49,466 bases of DNA from Solirubrobacterales bacterium (GTDB taxonomy: Bacteria > Actinomycetota > Thermoleophilia > Solirubrobacterales > 70-9): positions 1 through 49,466 of the forward strand of contig JAICSS010000020.1 in NCBI GenBank assembly GCA_025936755.1, given 5' to 3'. Made by a program: the position numbers and the translations under genes. This document shows, one piece after another, positions 2,591 to 33,092 of this stretch. A model generated the notes under the pieces. The model saw only the letters and a program-made list of their open reading frames with translations, had not been told where the DNA came from and did not search any database. Every line of letters starts with the position of its first letter. The first letter of the stretch is position 1.

Positions 2591-3454
2591 GTGCAGGCGC
2601 TGGGCATAGCTGCGGCGATCACGGCCTCGCTGCTCTACAACACCTCGATTGCGCTGCAGGCGCTGCAGGCACGGAAGGTGCCGGAGGACCATTCGCTGCG
2701 GCCGTCGCTGCTCGGTCGGCTGGCCCGCAACCGGCGCTGGCTGGGGGCGACCGCGCTGGGCTTGCTGGGGTGGCCGTTCGAGATCGCGGCGCTGCTGCTG
2801 GCGCCGCTGACGGTGGTGCAGCCGTGCCTGGCGAGCGGGCTGATCCTCCTGCTCTGGCTGGGGACCACGCGGTTGGGGGAGACGCCGGGATCACGCGAGC
2901 TCCTCGCCGTGGCGGCGATCGTCGTCGGGATCGGCGGCGTCGCCTGGGCGGCGCCGGAGCGGACGACCGCCCACGCCACCGCCGGAGCCATCGCCCTGGC
3001 GCTCGTGCTGGTCGCGCTACCGGTGCTGGCTCCCTATGCGGCTCGCGGGCGCGCGGGCGCCGCCGGCTCCCTTGCCGTTCTCAGCGCCGGCTGCGGCTAT
3101 GCCTGGACGGCGATCGCCAGCAAGCTGCTGACCGACGAGCTGGCGAACGGGGCCCTGCTGCTCGCGGCCCTCTGGCTCGCCACCGCCGCCGCTTCGGAGG
3201 GGTTGGCGCTGTTGAGCGAGATGAGCGCTCTGCAGCGGCGGCCGGCGACGCGCGTCGCTCCGGCGATGTTCGCCGTCCAGGTGCTGGTGCCGGTGGCGTT
3301 GGCGCCGCTGATCTTCGGCGAGTCCTGGGGGGAGACCCCGGCCGGAGGGGCGGCGCTGGCCGTTTTCATCGCCATCGCGGTGCTCGGGGCCGTGTTCCTG
3401 TCCGGCTCGCGCGCGGTCGGGAGGGTGGTCGAGTCCGCACATGTCGAGGATTGA
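2591..3454 (+). CDS. DMT/EamA-like integral membrane transporter
   Basis: A 287-residue protein made almost entirely of hydrophobic helices, about nine or ten by eye, with short basic connecting loops. Organisation and length resemble the drug/metabolite transporter superfamily, including the NIPA-like branch; the first helix is followed by a basic patch and then by the GWPFEIAALLLAPLTVVQP pair of helices. The substrate cannot be read from sequence. The GTG start sits 20 bases after the ETF-QO stop and lacks a Shine-Dalgarno, but TAGCCT ends six bases before it, so it may also be transcribed as a leaderless mRNA. Confidence 0.8.
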   Translation: MQALGIAAAITASLLYNTSIALQALQARKVPEDHSLRPSLLGRLARNRRWLGATALGLLGWPFEIAALLLAPLTVVQPCLASGLILLLWLGTTRLGETPGSRELLAVAAIVVGIGGVAWAAPERTTAHATAGAIALALVLVALPVLAPYAARGRAGAAGSLAVLSAGCGYAWTAIASKLLTDELANGALLLAALWLATAAASEGLALLSEMSALQRRPATRVAPAMFAVQVLVPVALAPLIFGESWGETPAGGAALAVFIAIAVLGAVFLSGSRAVGRVVESAHVED

Positions 3455-3497: not shown

Positions 3498-3570
3498 CAA
3501 CGCCGCCTATGGCGATGCAGTTTGTCTAGTCCGGCCGAGGCAGAGACCCAGCCACAGCCACCAAGGAGCC

Positions 3571-4611
3571 ATCGTAGGCGCCGCAGAGAACACTCTGCCC
3601 GACGCGAGCAAGTTCGCAATCGGGTTCGACCACCGCGACCGTGCGCGGCTGTTCGAGCTCTGGACCGAGATCCTCGACTCAGAGCAATGGTCCGAGGGCG
3701 CAAAGCTGAAGGCCTTCGAGCAGCGCTGGGAGCAGTGGAACGGGCTGCCGGCCCTCGGCCTCTCGAGCTGGGCCGGAGGGGCCCTGGCCGCGCTCGAGTT
3801 CGCCGGCGCCAGGGGCGAGACGGTGCTCTGCCCCTCCAACACCTTCATGGCGACGCCGCTGGCCGCGATCAACGCCGGCGCCGAGGTCGAGCTCGTCGAC
3901 TGCAACCGCGAGGACCTCTGCATGTCCTTTGCCGACTTCGAGCGCAAGGCCGAGCGGCATGAACCGCGGGCCGCGATCCTCGTCCACATCGGCGGCCACA
4001 TCGCCTTCGACGCCGAACGGATCGCGGCTTACTGTCGCGACAACGGCATCTTCCTGCTCGAGGACTGCGCCCATGCCCATGGGGCCGACTGGAACGGCAC
4101 CAGGCCGGGCGGTTTCGGCGACGCCGGCGTCTACTCGCTGTACGCGACCAAGACGGTCTCCAGCGGCGAGGGTGGGGTGCTGGTCTCCAGCAATCCCGAC
4201 CTGATCGAGTTCGCCGCCAAGTTCCGCAACTACGGCAAGTTCGAGCACGAGGTCGACGGCCTCAATTTCCGGATGAGCGAGTTCACCGCCGCCCTCGCCC
4301 TCGTCGGGGCGGAACGGATCGAGGAGATCGTCGCCTGGAAGAACCACTACGCGCGGGAGCGTGTCGACCCGCTCCATCCAGCCCGTCTCGAGCTGCCCGA
4401 CGGGATGACCTCGGGCCTCTACAAGTACATCGTCTTCGAACCGATCGAGAAATCGACGGGGCGGGTCTACGACCAGCCCTGCCATCGGATCATGGGCCGC
4501 TCCGAGGAGCTGCCCAACACCGACTGGGTTGCCGAGAATCACTGGTGCGTGCCGCTCTACTACCGACCCGAGAGCCGCGAGGCCGCACTGGGCGCGAAGG
4601 AGGAGTCATGA
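3571..4611 (+). CDS. DegT/DnrJ/EryC1/StrS-type PLP-dependent sugar aminotransferase
   Basis: Fold type I aminotransferase of the nucleotide-sugar family (aspartate-aminotransferase superfamily). It shows the AGGALAALEFAG segment, CPSNTFMATPLAAINAGAE, the EDCAHAHGA motif with its PLP-contacting Asp, and the Schiff-base lysine in YATKTVSSGEGG (about residue 194 from this start). These enzymes usually aminate keto-sugar nucleotides. The coding frame begins beside a strong AAGGAG (3563-3568), yet there is no in-frame ATG, GTG or TTG near it; ATC at 3571 or CTG at 3595 are the only nearby options, and the next in-frame ATG (3847) is deep in the domain. The start given here is therefore provisional. 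The stop overlaps the next start (ATGA). Confidence 0.88.
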   Translation: MVGAAENTLPDASKFAIGFDHRDRARLFELWTEILDSEQWSEGAKLKAFEQRWEQWNGLPALGLSSWAGGALAALEFAGARGETVLCPSNTFMATPLAAINAGAEVELVDCNREDLCMSFADFERKAERHEPRAAILVHIGGHIAFDAERIAAYCRDNGIFLLEDCAHAHGADWNGTRPGGFGDAGVYSLYATKTVSSGEGGVLVSSNPDLIEFAAKFRNYGKFEHEVDGLNFRMSEFTAALALVGAERIEEIVAWKNHYARERVDPLHPARLELPDGMTSGLYKYIVFEPIEKSTGRVYDQPCHRIMGRSEELPNTDWVAENHWCVPLYYRPESREAALGAKEES

Positions 4612-6932
4612 GGGTTCTGGTGACCGGAGGCGGAGGCTTCATCGGCTCTCACGTCGTCGACCGCTTGCTCGAGCGACGGGTGACGCCGCGCATCTTCGAC
4701 CTCAGCGCCTCGCCCTACCACTCGCCGCTGGAAGTCGAGACCTTCACCGGCAGCATCACCGACCCCGCCAACCTCGACCTGGCGATGCGCGACTGCGACG
4801 CCGTCATCCACCTCGCTGCGGTCGCCGACGTCGGCCACGTCCATGCCGATCCTGTGCTGGCCGAGGAGGTCAACACCCGCGGCACCCTCAACGTGCTCGA
4901 GGCTGCCTGCCGCGCCAAGGTAGGTCGTGTCGTCTACGGCTCGACCACCTGGGTCTACAGCGATTGCGTCGAGCAGGAGGTCGACGAGGAGACGCCGATC
5001 CCGGCTCCGCGTCACCTCTACACCGCGACCAAGCTGGCGGGTGAGACCTACTGCGCCGGCTATGCCGAGCTCTTCGAGCTCGAGAGCACGATCCTCCGCT
5101 TCGGCATCCCCTACGGGCCGCGCGCCCGCGCCGCCGGCGTCGTCGCCAAGTTCACCGACCTCGCCTTCGAAGGCAAGCCGCTGACGATCGCCGGCGACGG
5201 CAGTACGACCCGCAGCTTCATCTACGTCGAGGACCTCGCCGACGGCATCGTCGCCGCCCTCGAGCCCGAGGCGGCCGGTCGCACCTACAACCTCTCCGGC
5301 GAGGAGGTGGTGACGATCCTTGAAATCGCCGAGCGGGTCCAGGAAAACACCGACGACTGCGAGATCGTCCACACCCCGCCGCGACCGGGCGACTTCCCCG
5401 GCAAGGCGATCTCCAACGAGCGCGCGCTGGAGGAGCTGGGCTGGAAGGCGGACACCAGCTTCAAGGAGGGGGTCCGTCGGTATGTCGAATGGGTCCGCTC
5501 GAGCACCCGGCCGCCGGACCCGGTGCCGGGCAAGAAGCCGTCGCTGAACGGCAACGAACACGCCGCCGGGGCGCTGCTCGCGGGGGCCTCGCGCTTCGAA
5601 GAGCGCGAGCCGCGGGTGCTGATCCTCTCCGCCGACATCGGCGAGGGCCACGACCTGCCGGCGCGGATCATCAAGGCCGACATCGAAGAGGCGTACCCGG
5701 GTGCCGAAGTCGAGATCGAGAACGGGCTCGAGGCGATGGGAAGGCTGGCGGCCTCGGTGCTCCGCAACGGCTCCAAGATCACCTTCCGCTGGGCCCCCTG
5801 GATCTATGACGTTCAGTACTGGCTGATCACCAGGTTCGCTCCCACCCGCTGGCTTTTCCAGCGCATCGGCCAGCTGACCTCCGCCGGCGGGGTGCTGCGG
5901 CTGGTCGAGGAAAGCGATCCCGACGTCGTCATCTCCACCTACCCGGGGGTCACCGCGGTGCTGGGGATGCTGCGCGAAAGCGGGCGCCTGCAGGTCCCGG
6001 TGCAGTCGGCGATCACCGACCTGGCCGGGCTGCGCTACTGGGCGCATCCCGGGGTCGACCTTCACTACGTGACCCATCCGGAGTCGATCGAGGAAGTGGA
6101 GAGACTGGCCGGCCCGGGGACCGTCGAGTGGATGCGGCCGCCGGTCTCCCGCGAGTTCCTGATGCCGCGGACCCGCCGCGACGCTCGCGAGGCGCTCGAC
6201 GTACCGGCGCACGCCAGGCTCGTCCTCGTCTCCGGCGGGGGCTGGGGCGTCGGCGACCTCGAGGGTGCGATCAAGTCCGCCCTCTCCGGCGGCGACAGCC
6301 TCGTCGTCTGCATCACCGGCCGCAACGAGGCTCTGCGCGAACGCCTCGAGCAGCGCTTCGGCGACGACGAGCAGGTGCGGATACTCGGCTTCACCGAGCA
6401 GATGAGCGACTGGATGGCCGCCGCCGACGCGATGATCCACGCGACCGCCGGGCTGACCGTGCTCGAGGCGCATATCCGTGGCTGTCCGGTCGTCTCCTAC
6501 GGCTTCTCCGCCGGCCACCTGCGCGCCAACAACGCCGCCTTCGAGCGCTTCGGCCTCGCCGAGGTGGCTCGCTCCGAGCATGAGCTGGAGTCGGTCCTGC
6601 GCCACGTCACCCGTGAGCGGCAGGCGCCCGACTCCTCCTTTGCCTCGCTGCCCTCGATCGCCTCGCGGGCGCTGGACGTGCGCCCGCGGGTGAAGCCGCA
6701 GCCGGTCTGGCGGATGCGGACCGAGCGGGTCGCGGCGGCGGTAGCGGCGATGGCCGTGCTGGTGGTGATGATCCTCTCCGTAGTCAAGACCGAGAGTCCC
6801 TACAAGGTGGTCTCGACCCCGCTGAAGGGGCACATCCACATCATCACCGACGAGGACAAGGCTGCCGCCTCCTCCGGCGGGAAAGCGCCGCCGCAGTTGG
6901 CGCCGAGCTCGACGGCCTCCTCTTCTCGTTGA
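4608..6932 (+). CDS. Fusion: NAD-dependent sugar epimerase/dehydratase + MGDG-synthase-like glycosyltransferase + C-terminal membrane anchor
   Basis: A 774-residue multidomain protein. Residues 1 to about 310 are an extended short-chain dehydrogenase (TGGGGFIGSH Rossmann motif, catalytic YTATK), as in nucleotide-sugar 4-epimerases or dehydratases. From about residue 335 a second enzyme begins with LILSADIGEGHDLPAR, the GxGH entry motif of the MGDG synthase/UgtP family, followed by a GT28-like C-terminal half (SGGGWGVGD, ITGRNEAL, HATAGLTVLEA). Residues about 708-726 form a transmembrane helix and a 48-residue Ser/Ala-rich tail follows, probably outside. It overlaps the aminotransferase stop by ATGA and the deacetylase by TTGA, indicating coupled translation. 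The acceptor and sugar are unknown. Confidence 0.9.
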   Translation: MRVLVTGGGGFIGSHVVDRLLERRVTPRIFDLSASPYHSPLEVETFTGSITDPANLDLAMRDCDAVIHLAAVADVGHVHADPVLAEEVNTRGTLNVLEAACRAKVGRVVYGSTTWVYSDCVEQEVDEETPIPAPRHLYTATKLAGETYCAGYAELFELESTILRFGIPYGPRARAAGVVAKFTDLAFEGKPLTIAGDGSTTRSFIYVEDLADGIVAALEPEAAGRTYNLSGEEVVTILEIAERVQENTDDCEIVHTPPRPGDFPGKAISNERALEELGWKADTSFKEGVRRYVEWVRSSTRPPDPVPGKKPSLNGNEHAAGALLAGASRFEEREPRVLILSADIGEGHDLPARIIKADIEEAYPGAEVEIENGLEAMGRLAASVLRNGSKITFRWAPWIYDVQYWLITRFAPTRWLFQRIGQLTSAGGVLRLVEESDPDVVISTYPGVTAVLGMLRESGRLQVPVQSAITDLAGLRYWAHPGVDLHYVTHPESIEEVERLAGPGTVEWMRPPVSREFLMPRTRRDAREALDVPAHARLVLVSGGGWGVGDLEGAIKSALSGGDSLVVCITGRNEALRERLEQRFGDDEQVRILGFTEQMSDWMAAADAMIHATAGLTVLEAHIRGCPVVSYGFSAGHLRANNAAFERFGLAEVARSEHELESVLRHVTRERQAPDSSFASLPSIASRALDVRPRVKPQPVWRMRTERVAAAVAAMAVLVVMILSVVKTESPYKVVSTPLKGHIHIITDEDKAAASSGGKAPPQLAPSSTASSSR

Positions 6933-7654
6933 TCCGGGTGCTCCCCGCGGCCGGCCTGGCCGCCGGCGCGCTCTGGCACGCCGGGCCGGCGCTGGCGCCG
7001 GTCGTGCCCGTGGTCGGCCGGGGTCTCGGCGTCGTCCGGCGCCAGGATGACCTCGACGGGGTGGCGCTCACCTTCGACGACGGCCCGCACCCGCAGGGCA
7101 CCGTCTCGGTCCTGGAGATCCTGCGCGAGCACGCCGCTCAGGCAACCTTCTTCCTCGCCGGCGAGCAGGTGGAGCGGCGGCCATCGCTGGCTGCGGAGAT
7201 CGTCGCTGCGGGGCACCGGGTGGAGCTGCACTGCCACCGCCATCGCAACCAGTTGCGGCTGACGCCGCGGATGCTGCTCGAAGACGCCGAGCGGGGAAGG
7301 GCGGCGATCGAGGAGGCGAGCGGGCAGGCGATCGCCGATTACAGGCCTCCTTACGGGATCTTCAGCGCCTCCGGCCTACGGGCGGTCCGGAGCCGGGGCT
7401 GGCGGCCGCTGCTGTGGTCGAAGTGGGGACGGGACTGGGATCGACGGGCGACGCCGGCGTCGATCGGCGATCGGATAACTGCCGGCGTCAGCGCCGGCGA
7501 CGTCCTCCTCCTGCACGACGCCGACTACTACAGCGCGCCGGGCTGCTGGGCGCGCACGGCCGCGGCCCTGCCGGCGATCCTCGAGCTGCTCGAGGCGCGC
7601 GGGCTGAAGTCGAGGCTGTTGCGCCGGGGCGGCGCCGCGACGACGGTCCACTGA
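6929..7654 (+). CDS. NodB-type polysaccharide deacetylase, membrane-anchored or secreted
   Basis: Family 4 carbohydrate esterase of 241 residues: hydrophobic N-terminus, then LTFDDGPHPQG (catalytic and metal Asp), a His-rich ELHCHRHRNQL segment replacing the usual HSxxH, YRPPYGIF (RPPYG motif) and DVLLLHDADYY near the end. Such enzymes remove acetyl groups from N-acetylhexosamines in glycans. The start is TTG within the TTGA that also ends the upstream fusion gene; a GTG at 6938 is the alternative. As the third gene of the operon it probably modifies the glycan or glycolipid made by the aminotransferase and the fusion protein. Confidence 0.9.
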   Translation: MIRVLPAAGLAAGALWHAGPALAPVVPVVGRGLGVVRRQDDLDGVALTFDDGPHPQGTVSVLEILREHAAQATFFLAGEQVERRPSLAAEIVAAGHRVELHCHRHRNQLRLTPRMLLEDAERGRAAIEEASGQAIADYRPPYGIFSASGLRAVRSRGWRPLLWSKWGRDWDRRATPASIGDRITAGVSAGDVLLLHDADYYSAPGCWARTAAALPAILELLEARGLKSRLLRRGGAATTVH

Positions 7655-30140: not shown

Positions 30141-31785
30141 GCCGATCCCGGGCTGGACCCCGAAGAGGCCGCCGCCGAGCGGCGACGGCGAGCCGGCGCC
30201 GAAGCCGCGGCGCTTCTGGTGGCGGTTCCTCCTCGCCGCGGTCCTGATCGTCGCCGTCTCCGCGGCGACCACCGCGACGGCGAGCCTGCTCTACCTCGAC
30301 AGCATCGCCAACGCGATCCGGCCCGAAAACGACAAGCTGCAGAAGAAGCTGAACAAGTTCCTCGCCGACGCCGACGCCGGCGGCGCCCAGACCTTCCTCG
30401 TGATCGGCTCCGACAAGCGCGCCAACGAACAAGCCGACCCCGGCCGCTCCGACACGACGATGCTCGTCCGCCTCGACCCCGACCAGGGCCTGATCTCGAT
30501 GATGTCGATCCCGCGCGACCTCAAGGTCGAAATCCCCGGTTACGGGACCGGCAAGTTCAACGAAGCGTATTCCTACGGCGGCACCAAGCTGACCCTGCGG
30601 ACGGTCAAGTCGCTGACCGGGCTGCCGATCAACCACGTCGTCAACGTCGACTTCCTCGGCTTCGCCCAGGGCGTCTACGCGATCGGCTGCGTCTACACCG
30701 ACGTCGACCGCCGCTACTACCACTCCAACGAAGGCGTCCCGCCCTCCGAACAGTACGCCGAAATCAACGTCCAGCCCGGCTACCAGCTGATGTGCGGGAA
30801 GAAAGCCCTCGCCTACGTCCGCTATCGCCACACCGACACCGACATCGTCCGCTCCGCCCGCCAGCAGGAGTTCCTCAGCGCCGCCCGCTCGCGGGTCTCG
30901 CTTCAGGACCTCGTCTTCGACCAGGACGAACTGGTCGAGGCCTTCACCAACTACACGACCTCAGACATCAGCGACGGCAAGACCCTGCTGGAAGTCCTGA
31001 AACTGCTCGCCGCCTCGCGCAACTCGACGATCAACGAGGTCCACTTCCCGGCCGAACTCGGTCCCAGCTACGTCTACACGACCGAAAGCGCGCTCAAGGC
31101 GGCGGTACGGGAATTCCTCGGCGGCGAAACCGTGCAGGAGGCGAAGGCGGCCCAGCACCGGCGCCGCCGGGAACTCGCCGCCGGCAGGAAGCACAGGAGG
31201 CAGCACAAGCCGAAGCGGAAGAGCAAGCCGAAGAAGCCGAAGCTGGAAGCCGTGAAGGCCGGCAGCGACGGGCTCGTCCCGGCGCGCGAAGCCGGCGAAG
31301 CCGAGGCGAAGCTCGCCTCCCGCCGGTCCCGCGGCTTCTTCCCGGTCTACTATCCGACCCGGCTGCCCGAAGCCGCCCACTTCGTCGAAAGCGACCCCTA
31401 CGAAAAGGTCGTCGACCCCTACGTCTACAACATCAAGGACGAAGACGGGAACCGCCACCTCGCCTACCGGATGGTGCTGGTGGCGGAAATGGCCGACGGC
31501 GACCACTACTTCGGCGTGCAGGGGATCCGCGGCTGGTCGAATCCGCCCATCCTTGAGGATCCGAGCCTGACCAAGACGATAAACGGGCGTGACTACGACA
31601 TCTACGTCGACGGCGAAAATGTGAAAATGGTCGCCTGGCGCCGGGGAGAGAACGTCTACTGGATCTCCAACGACCTGCTGCGAACCCTCAGCAACGATCA
31701 GATGATCGGGATGGCGCGGTCGGCGGAGGTGATCGTCCCGAAGCAGAAGAAGAAGCGGCACGAGGCTGGAAGGAGCAGGGGATGA
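30133..31785 (+). CDS. LytR-CpsA-Psr (LCP) family phosphotransferase with an extra C-terminal domain
   Basis: A 550-residue membrane-anchored enzyme. A Pro-rich cytosolic N-terminus and one membrane helix (about residues 30-55) precede the LCP domain with GSDKRANEQADPGRSDTTML, SMMSIPRDLKVEIPG, KFNEAYSYGG and YVRYRHTDTDIVRSARQQ. LCP enzymes ligate undecaprenyl-linked polymers to peptidoglycan. After an extremely Lys/Arg-rich linker (about residues 340-375) comes a second globular region of about 150 residues (FFPVYYPTRLPEA to the end) of no recognised family. The stop overlaps ugd as ATGA, tying it to nucleotide-sugar synthesis. Confidence 0.93.
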   Translation: MTEPIPGWTPKRPPPSGDGEPAPKPRRFWWRFLLAAVLIVAVSAATTATASLLYLDSIANAIRPENDKLQKKLNKFLADADAGGAQTFLVIGSDKRANEQADPGRSDTTMLVRLDPDQGLISMMSIPRDLKVEIPGYGTGKFNEAYSYGGTKLTLRTVKSLTGLPINHVVNVDFLGFAQGVYAIGCVYTDVDRRYYHSNEGVPPSEQYAEINVQPGYQLMCGKKALAYVRYRHTDTDIVRSARQQEFLSAARSRVSLQDLVFDQDELVEAFTNYTTSDISDGKTLLEVLKLLAASRNSTINEVHFPAELGPSYVYTTESALKAAVREFLGGETVQEAKAAQHRRRRELAAGRKHRRQHKPKRKSKPKKPKLEAVKAGSDGLVPAREAGEAEAKLASRRSRGFFPVYYPTRLPEAAHFVESDPYEKVVDPYVYNIKDEDGNRHLAYRMVLVAEMADGDHYFGVQGIRGWSNPPILEDPSLTKTINGRDYDIYVDGENVKMVAWRRGENVYWISNDLLRTLSNDQMIGMARSAEVIVPKQKKKRHEAGRSRG

Positions 31786-33092
31786 GCGAGCAGAAGAGCA
31801 CCGTTGGGGTCATCGGAGTCGGCTGGGTCGGCCTCGTCACCGCCGCCTGCTTCGCCGAGCTCGGCCACCCGGTGATCGCCCGCGACATCGTCCAGGAGAA
31901 GGTCGACGCCCTCTCCCGCGGCGAGGTCTCGATCCATGAGCCCGGTTTGGAGGACCTGCTGCGGCGGAACGCCGAGCGCCTCGCCTTCACCACCGACATG
32001 GACGAGCTGCTCGCCGGCGCGAACCTGCTCTTCGTCTGCGTCGACACGCCCCCGACCTACTCCGGAGACGCCGACCTCTCGCGGGTGCGGGCGGTCGTCC
32101 AGGAGCTGCCCGAGGACAGCGACCACGTCCTGATCATGAAGAGCACGGTTCCGGCCGGCACCGGCGAGTCGATCCGCCGCGACGTGCCCGGCCTCTCCTA
32201 CGTCTCCTGCCCCGAGTTCCTCAAGGAGGGGACGGCGGTCAAGGACTTCATGAACCCCGACCGCGTCGTCGTCGGCGCCGACCCGGGCGACGAGTCGGCG
32301 GCTGACGCCGTCGAGGGCCTCTACCGGCCGCTCGGCGGCGAGATCCTCCGCACCGACGTCGCCAGCGCCGAGATGATCAAGCTCGCCTCCAACGCCTTCC
32401 TGGCGACGAAGATCTCCTTCATCAACGAGATCGCCAACGTCTGCGAGGAGGTCGGCGCCGACGTCGGCCAGGTCGCCACAGGGATGGGGCTCGACGAGCG
32501 GATCGGCAGCTCCTTCCTCCGTGCCGGGATCGGCTACGGGGGCAGCTGCTTCCCCAAGGACGTCAGCGCCCTGAAGATGCTGGCGGGGAACACCGGCTAC
32601 CACTTCCAGCTGCTGACCGCGGTGATCGAGGTCAACGAGCTGCAGAAGCGCCGCGTCGTCGGCAAGCTCGAGAAGCACCTCGGCTCGCTGATCGGCAAGC
32701 GGGTGGCGCTGCTCGGCCTCGCCTTCAAGCCCGACACCGACGACATGCGCGAGGCCTCGAGCCTGGTCCTGGCGGCGCGGCTGCAGGGCGAGGGGGCGGA
32801 GGTCGTCGCCTACGACCCGGTCGCCGCCGAGCGCGCCGCCGGCCTGCTCGGCACGGTCGAGATGGCGACCTCGGCGATGGAGGCTCTGGAAGGGGCCGAC
32901 GCCGCGGTGCTGGTGACCGAGTGGAAGGAGTTCGCCGAGCTCGACTGGGCCGCCGCCGGTGAGCGGATGAACCGCGCTCTCGTGGTCGACGGCCGCAACT
33001 TCCTCGACCCGGAGAAGTTGATCGAGTCGGGATTCGAGTACGAGGGTATTGGGCGAACCGTGAACTCACCGCGACCCGCCACCGCCCCCTAG
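31782..33092 (+). CDS. UDP-glucose 6-dehydrogenase family protein
   Basis: A 436-residue NAD-dependent four-electron dehydrogenase of the UDP-Glc/GDP-Man dehydrogenase family. Rossmann motif VGVIGVGWVGLVTAACFAELGH, STVPAGTGESIRRD, EMIKLASNAFLATKISFINE, the catalytic Cys in GYGGSCFPKD, and AFKPDTDDMREASSL. Oxidation of UDP-glucose to UDP-glucuronate is the likeliest reaction given the UDP-Glc-type N-terminus, though UDP-ManNAc or GDP-Man cannot be excluded. It is translationally coupled to the LCP gene. Confidence 0.92.
   Translation: MSEQKSTVGVIGVGWVGLVTAACFAELGHPVIARDIVQEKVDALSRGEVSIHEPGLEDLLRRNAERLAFTTDMDELLAGANLLFVCVDTPPTYSGDADLSRVRAVVQELPEDSDHVLIMKSTVPAGTGESIRRDVPGLSYVSCPEFLKEGTAVKDFMNPDRVVVGADPGDESAADAVEGLYRPLGGEILRTDVASAEMIKLASNAFLATKISFINEIANVCEEVGADVGQVATGMGLDERIGSSFLRAGIGYGGSCFPKDVSALKMLAGNTGYHFQLLTAVIEVNELQKRRVVGKLEKHLGSLIGKRVALLGLAFKPDTDDMREASSLVLAARLQGEGAEVVAYDPVAAERAAGLLGTVEMATSAMEALEGADAAVLVTEWKEFAELDWAAAGERMNRALVVDGRNFLDPEKLIESGFEYEGIGRTVNSPRPATAP

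What the first reader, a model, noticed from the sequence alone, without database searches (positions are those of the whole stretch)
3571..7654. Three-gene coupled operon built around an epimerase-glycosyltransferase-membrane fusion
One 774-residue chain joins a sugar-nucleotide epimerase/dehydratase, an MGDG-synthase/UgtP-like glycosyltransferase and a C-terminal membrane helix with an exposed tail. It overlaps a DegT aminotransferase (ATGA) and a NodB deacetylase (TTGA). The sequence order suggests making an amino-sugar donor, transferring it to a lipid, and deacetylating the product. I know of no described pathway with this exact fusion.
Basis: partly seen in the sequence, partly recalled or inferred. 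Interest (0 to 1): 0.62.

Follow-up and report, generated by a model that had tools for sequence, protein, structure and literature searches.

The report
Fused sugar-lipid enzyme and deacetylase module
A soil actinobacterium carries a conserved set of genes, one of them a genuine two-enzyme fusion, that probably builds a positively charged amino-sugar lipid at the cell surface, much like systems recently shown to change membrane charge and antibiotic sensitivity in other bacteria.

Summary
The 774-residue chain (4608-6932) is a sugar-nucleotide SDR (1-300), a disordered linker, an MGDG-synthase-type glycosyltransferase (334-699) and one membrane helix. It overlaps a DegT aminotransferase and a NodB deacetylase by 4 nt. 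It is no sequencing error: the open fusion occurs in 34 loci of four genera. In other Thermoleophilia the same SDR and GT are separate genes, yet mostly stay clustered.

New here: in most relatives with the C-terminal helix, it leads to an extra domain that AlphaFold2 (pLDDT 92) and Foldseek identify as a degenerate CE4/NodB fold, a pseudo-deacetylase outside the cell. The window's genus has lost it; its exposed tail is the remnant.

The GT-deacetylase-transporter core works like HexSDF of C. difficile and GpgSDF of P. aeruginosa, which make amino-sugar lipids. DegT plus SDR, the fusion and the pseudo-deacetylase are additions I found no description of. The sugar, lipid acceptor and flippase role are inferred. 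Verdict: a new variant of a known kind.

The parts
2591..3454 (+). DMT-type multi-spanning membrane protein, candidate glycolipid flippase
   Evidence: No Pfam hit itself; orthologues next to the GT in other genera give weak EamA / Mg_trans_NIPA matches below cut-off. An orthologue lies within 3.5 kb of the GT in 56 of 113 loci.
3563..3576 (+). AAGGAG Shine-Dalgarno-like box and invariant GTA codon, probable start region of the DegT gene
   Evidence: Alignment of 8 genomes of the genus: CGTAGG invariant, no ATG/GTG/TTG in frame nearby in the window.
3571..4611 (+). DegT/DnrJ/EryC1/StrS sugar aminotransferase with PLP lysine K194 and D165
   Evidence: PF01041 179 bits; motifs EDCAHxHGA and TKTxSxGEGG conserved in 50 orthologues.
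4608..4611 (+). ATGA overlap between the DegT and fusion genes
   Evidence: Sequence; 4-nt overlap recurs in L065, L066, L070, L071, L077, L090, L091.
4608..6932 (+). SDR-GT-TM fusion gene, 774 aa
4608..5507 (+). SDR domain (residues 1-300): T113, Y138, K142; no dehydratase DE pair (T114-W115 instead)
   Evidence: PF01370; nearest structures UDP-Glc 4-epimerase 4zrm and UDP-GlcNAc C4-epimerase 6wjb; ST.WVY and Y...K conserved in 63 orthologues.
5508..5606 (+). Interdomain linker (residues 301-333), disordered and variable in length
   Evidence: pLDDT 33-42; linkers open in the fused loci listed.
5607..6704 (+). MGDG-synthase/UgtP-type GT-B glycosyltransferase domain (residues 334-699), invariant H348
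   Evidence: PF06925 and PF04101 above cut-off; PDB hits 9wde (processive DAG beta-glucosyltransferase) and 4wyi (MGD1); conservation over 103 members.
6705..6788 (+). C-terminal transmembrane helix (residues 700-727)
   Evidence: AF2 helix 700-727; hydrophobic peak 708-726.
6789..6929 (+). Extracytoplasmic tail, at the place where relatives carry a CE4-fold pseudo-deacetylase domain
   Evidence: Tail 74-86 aa past the GT in g1 versus about 215-360 aa in g12 (L066), g35, g38, g45, g39, g40 and others; fold of that domain.
6929..6932 (+). TTGA overlap between the fusion and NodB genes
   Evidence: Sequence; 4-nt overlap also in L070, L072, L076.
6929..7654 (+). NodB/CE4 polysaccharide deacetylase with hydrophobic N-terminus; catalytic motifs intact (D50, D51, H101, H105, RPPYG, LLHD)
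   Evidence: PF01522 95 bits; FDDGP, HxxxH and LLHD in all 87 orthologues.

Best explanation
This is an amino-glycolipid module of Thermoleophilia. In the cytoplasm the SDR and the DegT aminotransferase convert a UDP-sugar into an amino-sugar donor; I think UDP-GlcNAc or a close relative is the most likely starting sugar. The MGDG-synthase-type GT, held at the membrane by its C-terminal helix, transfers the sugar to a membrane lipid, most likely diacylglycerol or a monoglycosyl-diacylglycerol. The DMT-type protein moves the glycolipid to the outer leaflet. There the membrane-anchored NodB enzyme removes the N-acetyl group and exposes a free amine, giving a cationic or zwitterionic surface glycolipid. 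In most relatives with the C-terminal helix it carries a catalytically dead CE4 domain outside the cell; that domain may hold the active deacetylase or the lipid product next to the synthase. Fusing SDR to GT may channel the unusual donor. Shown here: gene content, linkage, fusion, fold of the extra domain, intact catalytic residues. Inferred: the sugar, the lipid, the flippase role, the side of deacetylation and channelling.
For: Domain matches and catalytic residues. Linkage: deacetylase within 3.5 kb of 98 of 113 GT loci, DegT within 6 kb of 58, DMT within 3.5 kb of 56. Of the 68 genomes of the order with the DegT orthologue, all but one (G126) also have the GT/SDR match. Gene order is reshuffled while content is kept, which argues for function rather than recent inheritance. 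The GT is the only MGDG_synth match in this genome. The GT-tethered CE4 pseudo-domain places deacetylase-like function beside the GT. GTs with DegT/SDR carry D-L-P just after the catalytic His where the DegT-less clade has A-A-A, and differ at L616/V616 and N642/T, compatible with a different substrate. Precedent: HexSDF = MGDG synthase + polysaccharide deacetylase + flippase; loss removes HNHDRG and lack of HexD accumulates the acetylated form (PMC10128005); gpgSDF in P. aeruginosa (PMC12713373).
Against: No lipid or enzyme data for any Thermoleophilia member were found. The SDR lacks the dehydratase DE pair and could be a plain 4-epimerase, leaving the keto substrate of DegT unexplained. The DMT protein is not of the MprF/YbhN flippase type and has no direct evidence of lipid transport. 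About half of the GT loci lack DegT/SDR. In some DegT-less relatives a GT87 gene or a PAP2 gene lies nearby, which would fit a polyprenyl-linked product. The substrate-signature residues are confounded by phylogeny. GpgD is predicted cytoplasmic, and HexD may act inside, so the side of deacetylation is open.
Confidence: 0.5

Rival explanations
1. The GT loads a polyprenyl phosphate, not diacylglycerol. The flipped and deacetylated amino sugar is then moved by a GT-C enzyme onto a cell-wall polymer, as in the Arn pathway or galactosaminylation of mycobacterial arabinogalactan.
For: The gene kinds parallel ArnB (DegT), the ArnA SDR domain, ArnD (NodB-like fold, PMC10967932) and ArnE/F (DMT). A GT87 gene adjoins or neighbours the GT in L109, L114, L118 and L122, and a PAP2_3 gene lies near in g40/g30.
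Against: The GT belongs to the MGDG_synth family whose characterised members use diacylglycerol, not the GT2 type of ArnC. The SDR lacks the decarboxylase Glu, and no formyltransferase or ArnT-like gene is recurrent in the module. The GT87 neighbour is confined to a few loci.
Confidence: 0.22
2. The SDR is only a UDP-GlcNAc/UDP-Glc 4-epimerase supplying the GT, and DegT works on a keto-sugar made elsewhere or on an unrelated envelope sugar. The module then makes a deacetylated HexNAc lipid without extra amination.
For: Nearest structures to the SDR are 4-epimerases; the motif is STTWVY with no DE pair. GT+NodB without DegT/SDR is common.
Against: DegT and SDR occur as an adjacent pair, with 4-nt overlaps in the fused genera, and stay near the GT in most loci when present.
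Confidence: 0.2
3. The cluster makes a capsular or exopolysaccharide unit, and NodB deacetylates the polymer.
For: DegT, SDR and NodB families are common in polysaccharide loci (general knowledge).
Against: No further GT family or polymerisation gene recurs around the module across genera in the loci examined (only some neighbour families were identified); the one GT is of the lipid-glycosylating type.
Confidence: 0.08

Closest known systems
HexSDF of Clostridioides difficile (PMC10128005, PMC11898633)
   Same: MGDG-synthase-family GT plus polysaccharide deacetylase plus a membrane protein proposed to flip lipids; makes aminohexosyl-hexosyldiradylglycerol through an acetylated intermediate.
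   Different: HexF is MprF-like, here a DMT-type protein; no DegT, SDR, fusion or pseudo-deacetylase domain is described there. C. difficile has a separate UgtA for the first hexose; the window genome has one MGDG_synth GT only.
GpgSDF of Pseudomonas aeruginosa (PMC12713373)
   Same: Synthase-deacetylase-flippase logic giving an amino-sugar lipid (GlcN-PG).
   Different: GpgS is a GT4-type enzyme, GpgD is COG3233, GpgF is a YbhN-type protein: different families throughout.
Arn pathway (L-Ara4N on lipid A)
   Same: DegT aminotransferase, SDR, GT, NodB-fold enzyme and DMT-type transporter combined.
   Different: No decarboxylase signature in the SDR, no formyltransferase, a GT of another family and no ArnT found near.
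UgtP / MGD1 glycolipid synthases (9wde, 4wyi)
   Same: Same GT-B family; conserved His in the N-terminal GxGH loop.
   Different: SDR fused at the N-terminus and a TM helix (with or without a CE4 pseudo-domain) at the C-terminus.
CE4 pseudoenzymes such as BA3943 (6hm9, 6hpa, 7bkf)
   Same: CE4 fold without the catalytic set.
   Different: Here tethered by a TM helix to a lipid glycosyltransferase.

Membership tests
MGDG_synth glycosyltransferases (PF06925 / GT28-type) | Match above the curated cut-off over the N-terminal domain, GT28-type C-terminal domain | tested here: met
   47 bits vs 25 and 25 bits vs 22; H348 invariant in 103 members.
Extended SDR, nucleotide-sugar type (PF01370) | Rossmann glycine motif, YxxxK, above cut-off | tested here: met
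   171 bits vs 20.9; GGGGFIGS and Y138xxxK142.
NDP-sugar 4,6-dehydratase | Catalytic TDE motif | tested here: not met
   S112-T113-T114-W115, ST.WVY conserved; NCBIfam TIGR01181 142 bits vs cut-off 365.
DegT/DnrJ/EryC1/StrS aminotransferases (PF01041) | Above cut-off, PLP lysine and aspartate | tested here: met
   179 bits vs 19.8; D165 and K194 conserved. No NCBIfam equivalog cut-off reached, so the substrate class is unassigned.
CE4 / NodB deacetylases, window 6929-7654 (PF01522) | Above cut-off with the catalytic motifs | tested here: met
   95 bits vs 23; FDDGP, HxxxH, LLHD in 87 of 87.
CE4 fold, C-terminal domain of relatives | CE4 (NodB) fold | tested here: met
   AF2 pLDDT 92; Foldseek top hit 6hm9 E 7e-7; VIA Z 19.0 to 4m1b, rmsd 2.7, 175 aligned. 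The sequence-only profile comparison was weak.
CE4 fold, C-terminal domain of relatives | Catalytic Asp-Asp and HxxxH metal site | tested here: not met
   Second Asp position never D in 44 sequences; no conserved HxxxH column.
HexSDF-type amino-glycolipid operon | MGDG-synthase GT with polysaccharide deacetylase | tested here: met
HexSDF-type amino-glycolipid operon | MprF-like flippase encoded in the operon | tested here: not met
   The linked membrane protein has no Pfam hit; orthologues are weakly EamA/NIPA-like. An MprF-like gene elsewhere in the genome was not sought.
HexSDF-type amino-glycolipid operon | Product is an amino-sugar diradylglycerol | not testable with these tools
   Needs lipidomics.
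Arn (L-Ara4N) pathway | UDP-GlcA decarboxylase signature (S-E) in the SDR | tested here: not met
   T114-W115 at these positions; the ArnA motif is from general knowledge.
Arn (L-Ara4N) pathway | ArnC-type GT2 in the cluster | tested here: not met
   The only GT in the conserved module is MGDG_synth type.
Arn (L-Ara4N) pathway | ArnT transferase and formyltransferase in the genome | not tested
   Not sought genome-wide; the GT-C gene seen near some relatives is GT87.

The most novel reading that the evidence does not exclude
Thermoleophilia make a previously undescribed surface glycolipid whose head group is a di-amino or otherwise amino-modified sugar. It would be built by a single synthase that combines donor synthesis (SDR), lipid glycosylation (GT) and an extracytoplasmic pseudo-deacetylase that recruits the true deacetylase, so one chain organises the pathway on both sides of the membrane.
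Probability: 0.25. Interest if true: 0.72.

Novelty: new variant of a known kind. Interest (0 to 1): 0.5.

Why it matters
Amino-sugar lipids change membrane charge; in C. difficile they underlie daptomycin and bacitracin resistance. Enzymes for them were identified only in 2023-2025, in two organisms with mostly unrelated proteins. This module would extend the principle to a large, poorly cultured class of soil actinobacteria, with a new transporter type and a dedicated amino-donor pair. The SDR-GT fusion and the TM-tethered pseudo-deacetylase predict a physical assembly that spans the membrane, which can be tested directly.

Tried and rejected
Sequencing error or missing stop: rejected, because 34 loci in four genera are open across a variable linker. 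Chance adjacency: rejected, 98 of 113 loci. Recent operon of one lineage: rejected, the module is class-wide with shuffled order. Dehydratase role of the SDR: rejected on the missing DE pair. Sequence-only profile comparison of the C-terminal domain with NodB (hhalign probability 4.5 percent, P 0.009) was inconclusive; the structure prediction settled it. Pfam on 44 of these domains found nothing consistent. Paper searches for Solirubrobacterales or Solirubrobacter glycolipids, and for MGDG synthase with deacetylase, epimerase and aminotransferase, found nothing relevant. Only open-licence full text was searched, so 'undescribed' is limited to that library. The DegT orthologue was not found at E 1e-60 in any other of 296 sampled genomes of the phylum; that is a sample, not an absence proof.

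Full report
Observation. The window is a contig of a 2.4-Mb genome (G000) whose closest named relatives are Solirubrobacterales/Thermoleophilia MAGs. The 774-codon frame at 4608-6932 is intact. Pfam places Epimerase at 3-229, MGDG_synth at 355-497 and the GT28 C-terminal domain at 556-673. An AlphaFold2 model of the whole chain (mean pLDDT 87) shows two confident domains, 1-300 and 334-699, a disordered linker, a helix at 700-727 and a disordered tail; pTM 0.59 leaves the domain arrangement open. DegT and NodB flank it with 4-nt overlaps.

Is it an error or a chance fusion? No. The same open fusion is found in 34 loci: 8 of g1 (the window's genus), 2 of g12, 1 of g35 and 23 of g38. Linkers vary widely in length but stay open. 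In a GT tree the fused sequences form one clade (SH-aLRT 94) that also holds g45, where DegT, SDR and GT are adjacent but separate genes. A single fusion followed by fission in g45, or separate fusions, cannot be told apart; the tree needs 3 state changes, one of which is L144, whose SDR part was not counted as joined.

Census. In 232 genomes of the order, 108 match the fusion at E<=1e-60 and 68 have the DegT orthologue; 67 of those 68 are among the 108. Across about 100 fetched loci (113 GT loci counted), NodB lies within 3.5 kb in 98, DMT within 3.5 kb in 56, SDR within 6 kb in 62 and DegT within 6 kb in 58. Some loci are cut by contig ends, so these are lower bounds. Order and strand vary: DMT< GT> NodB> SDR< DegT< in L107, DegT> SDR> NodB< DMT> GT< in L101, and a single strand in the window. 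The module also occurs in other families of the class but the DegT orthologue was not found in a sample of the rest of the phylum. A second version, GT+NodB, usually with DMT but without DegT/SDR, is common in g39, g40 and others.

The hidden domain. In g12 (L066), g35, g38, g45, g39, g40 and other genera the GT is followed by a TM helix and roughly 170 further residues with no Pfam match. AlphaFold2 from 44 sequences gives pLDDT 92 and pTM 0.88. Foldseek's best match is the CE4 pseudoenzyme 6hm9 (E 7e-7), and the top rows are CE4 enzymes. VIA-align gives Z 19.0 to 4m1b (rmsd 2.7, 175 aligned), with ArnD at Z 11.8. The second Asp of motif 1 is never present, no HxxxH column is conserved, and Pro64 is invariant. 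It is therefore a degenerate deacetylase domain, and the positive-inside rule puts it on the outer side of the membrane. In the window's genus only 74-86 residues follow the GT, and the active NodB gene begins there, overlapping by 4 nt in the window, L070, L072 and L076. One g12 locus (L065) also lacks the domain.

Active sites. GT: the His of the GxGH loop (H348) is invariant, and the SGGGWGVGD and TxLEA loops are strongly conserved. SDR: T113/Y138/K142 with ST.WVY, so not a 4,6-dehydratase; nearest structures are 4-epimerases. DegT: D165/K194. NodB: FDDGP, HxxxH and LLHD in 87 of 87. GTs that travel with DegT/SDR carry D-L-P after the catalytic His where the DegT-less clade has A-A-A, with further differences at 616 and 642. 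This fits a change of substrate but is confounded by descent.

Mechanism. HexSDF provides the template: an MGDG-synthase GT adds N-acetyl-hexose to a glycolipid, a polysaccharide deacetylase frees the amine, and a flippase is encoded alongside (PMC10128005); hexSDF plus ugtA suffices in B. subtilis (PMC11898633). gpgSDF does the same on phosphatidylglycerol with other protein families (PMC12713373). I propose that the Thermoleophilia module works like these, with the SDR-DegT pair modifying the donor first. What is shown: content, linkage, fusion, fold, conserved residues. What is inferred: the sugar, the acceptor, the DMT's role and the side of deacetylation. The main rival is a polyprenyl-linked, Arn-like route.

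Membership. The GT, SDR, DegT and NodB belong to their broad families. The module is not filed as HexSDF, because the MprF-like flippase was tested and not met for the linked membrane protein, nor as Arn, because the decarboxylase and GT2 features were not met. 'Works like HexSDF' stands; 'is HexSDF' does not.

Verdict. A genuine, conserved and informative fusion inside a class-wide module. The principle is known, the composition is new: a new variant of a known kind, interest 0.5.

Noticed in passing
window 3563-3576; L080-L086: In 8 genomes of the genus the DegT gene has no ATG/GTG/TTG where homology begins. An AAGGAG-like box precedes an invariant GTA (CGTAGG identical in all 8, flanks variable), with in-frame stops close upstream in several. 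Possibly a conserved non-canonical GUA start codon.
   Followed up: partly
window 31782-33092: A UDP-glucose/GDP-mannose dehydrogenase family gene (PF03721) lies in the same window, one of two clear matches in the genome; a possible UDP-uronate source.
   Followed up: no
L114, L118, L122, L109: A GT87-type GT-C gene adjoins or neighbours the GT in several relatives, mostly DegT-less.
   Followed up: partly
L113, L118, L120, L122: A PAP2_3 gene sits near NodB in g40 and g30; in g40 the whole set lies between a Glycos_transf_4 gene and the ATP synthase operon or close by.
   Followed up: partly
L122, L145, L147, L158 C-termini: g40 GT proteins end in a conserved low-complexity Ser/Thr/Ala tail (SSSGERAS...SSSGASTTGTTV) after the pseudo-CE4 domain.
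   Followed up: no
L067 / L042 (7127-8400 in L067): The DegT and SDR frames of this MAG are broken and a run of N lies upstream, unlike all congeners; probably assembly errors.
   Followed up: no
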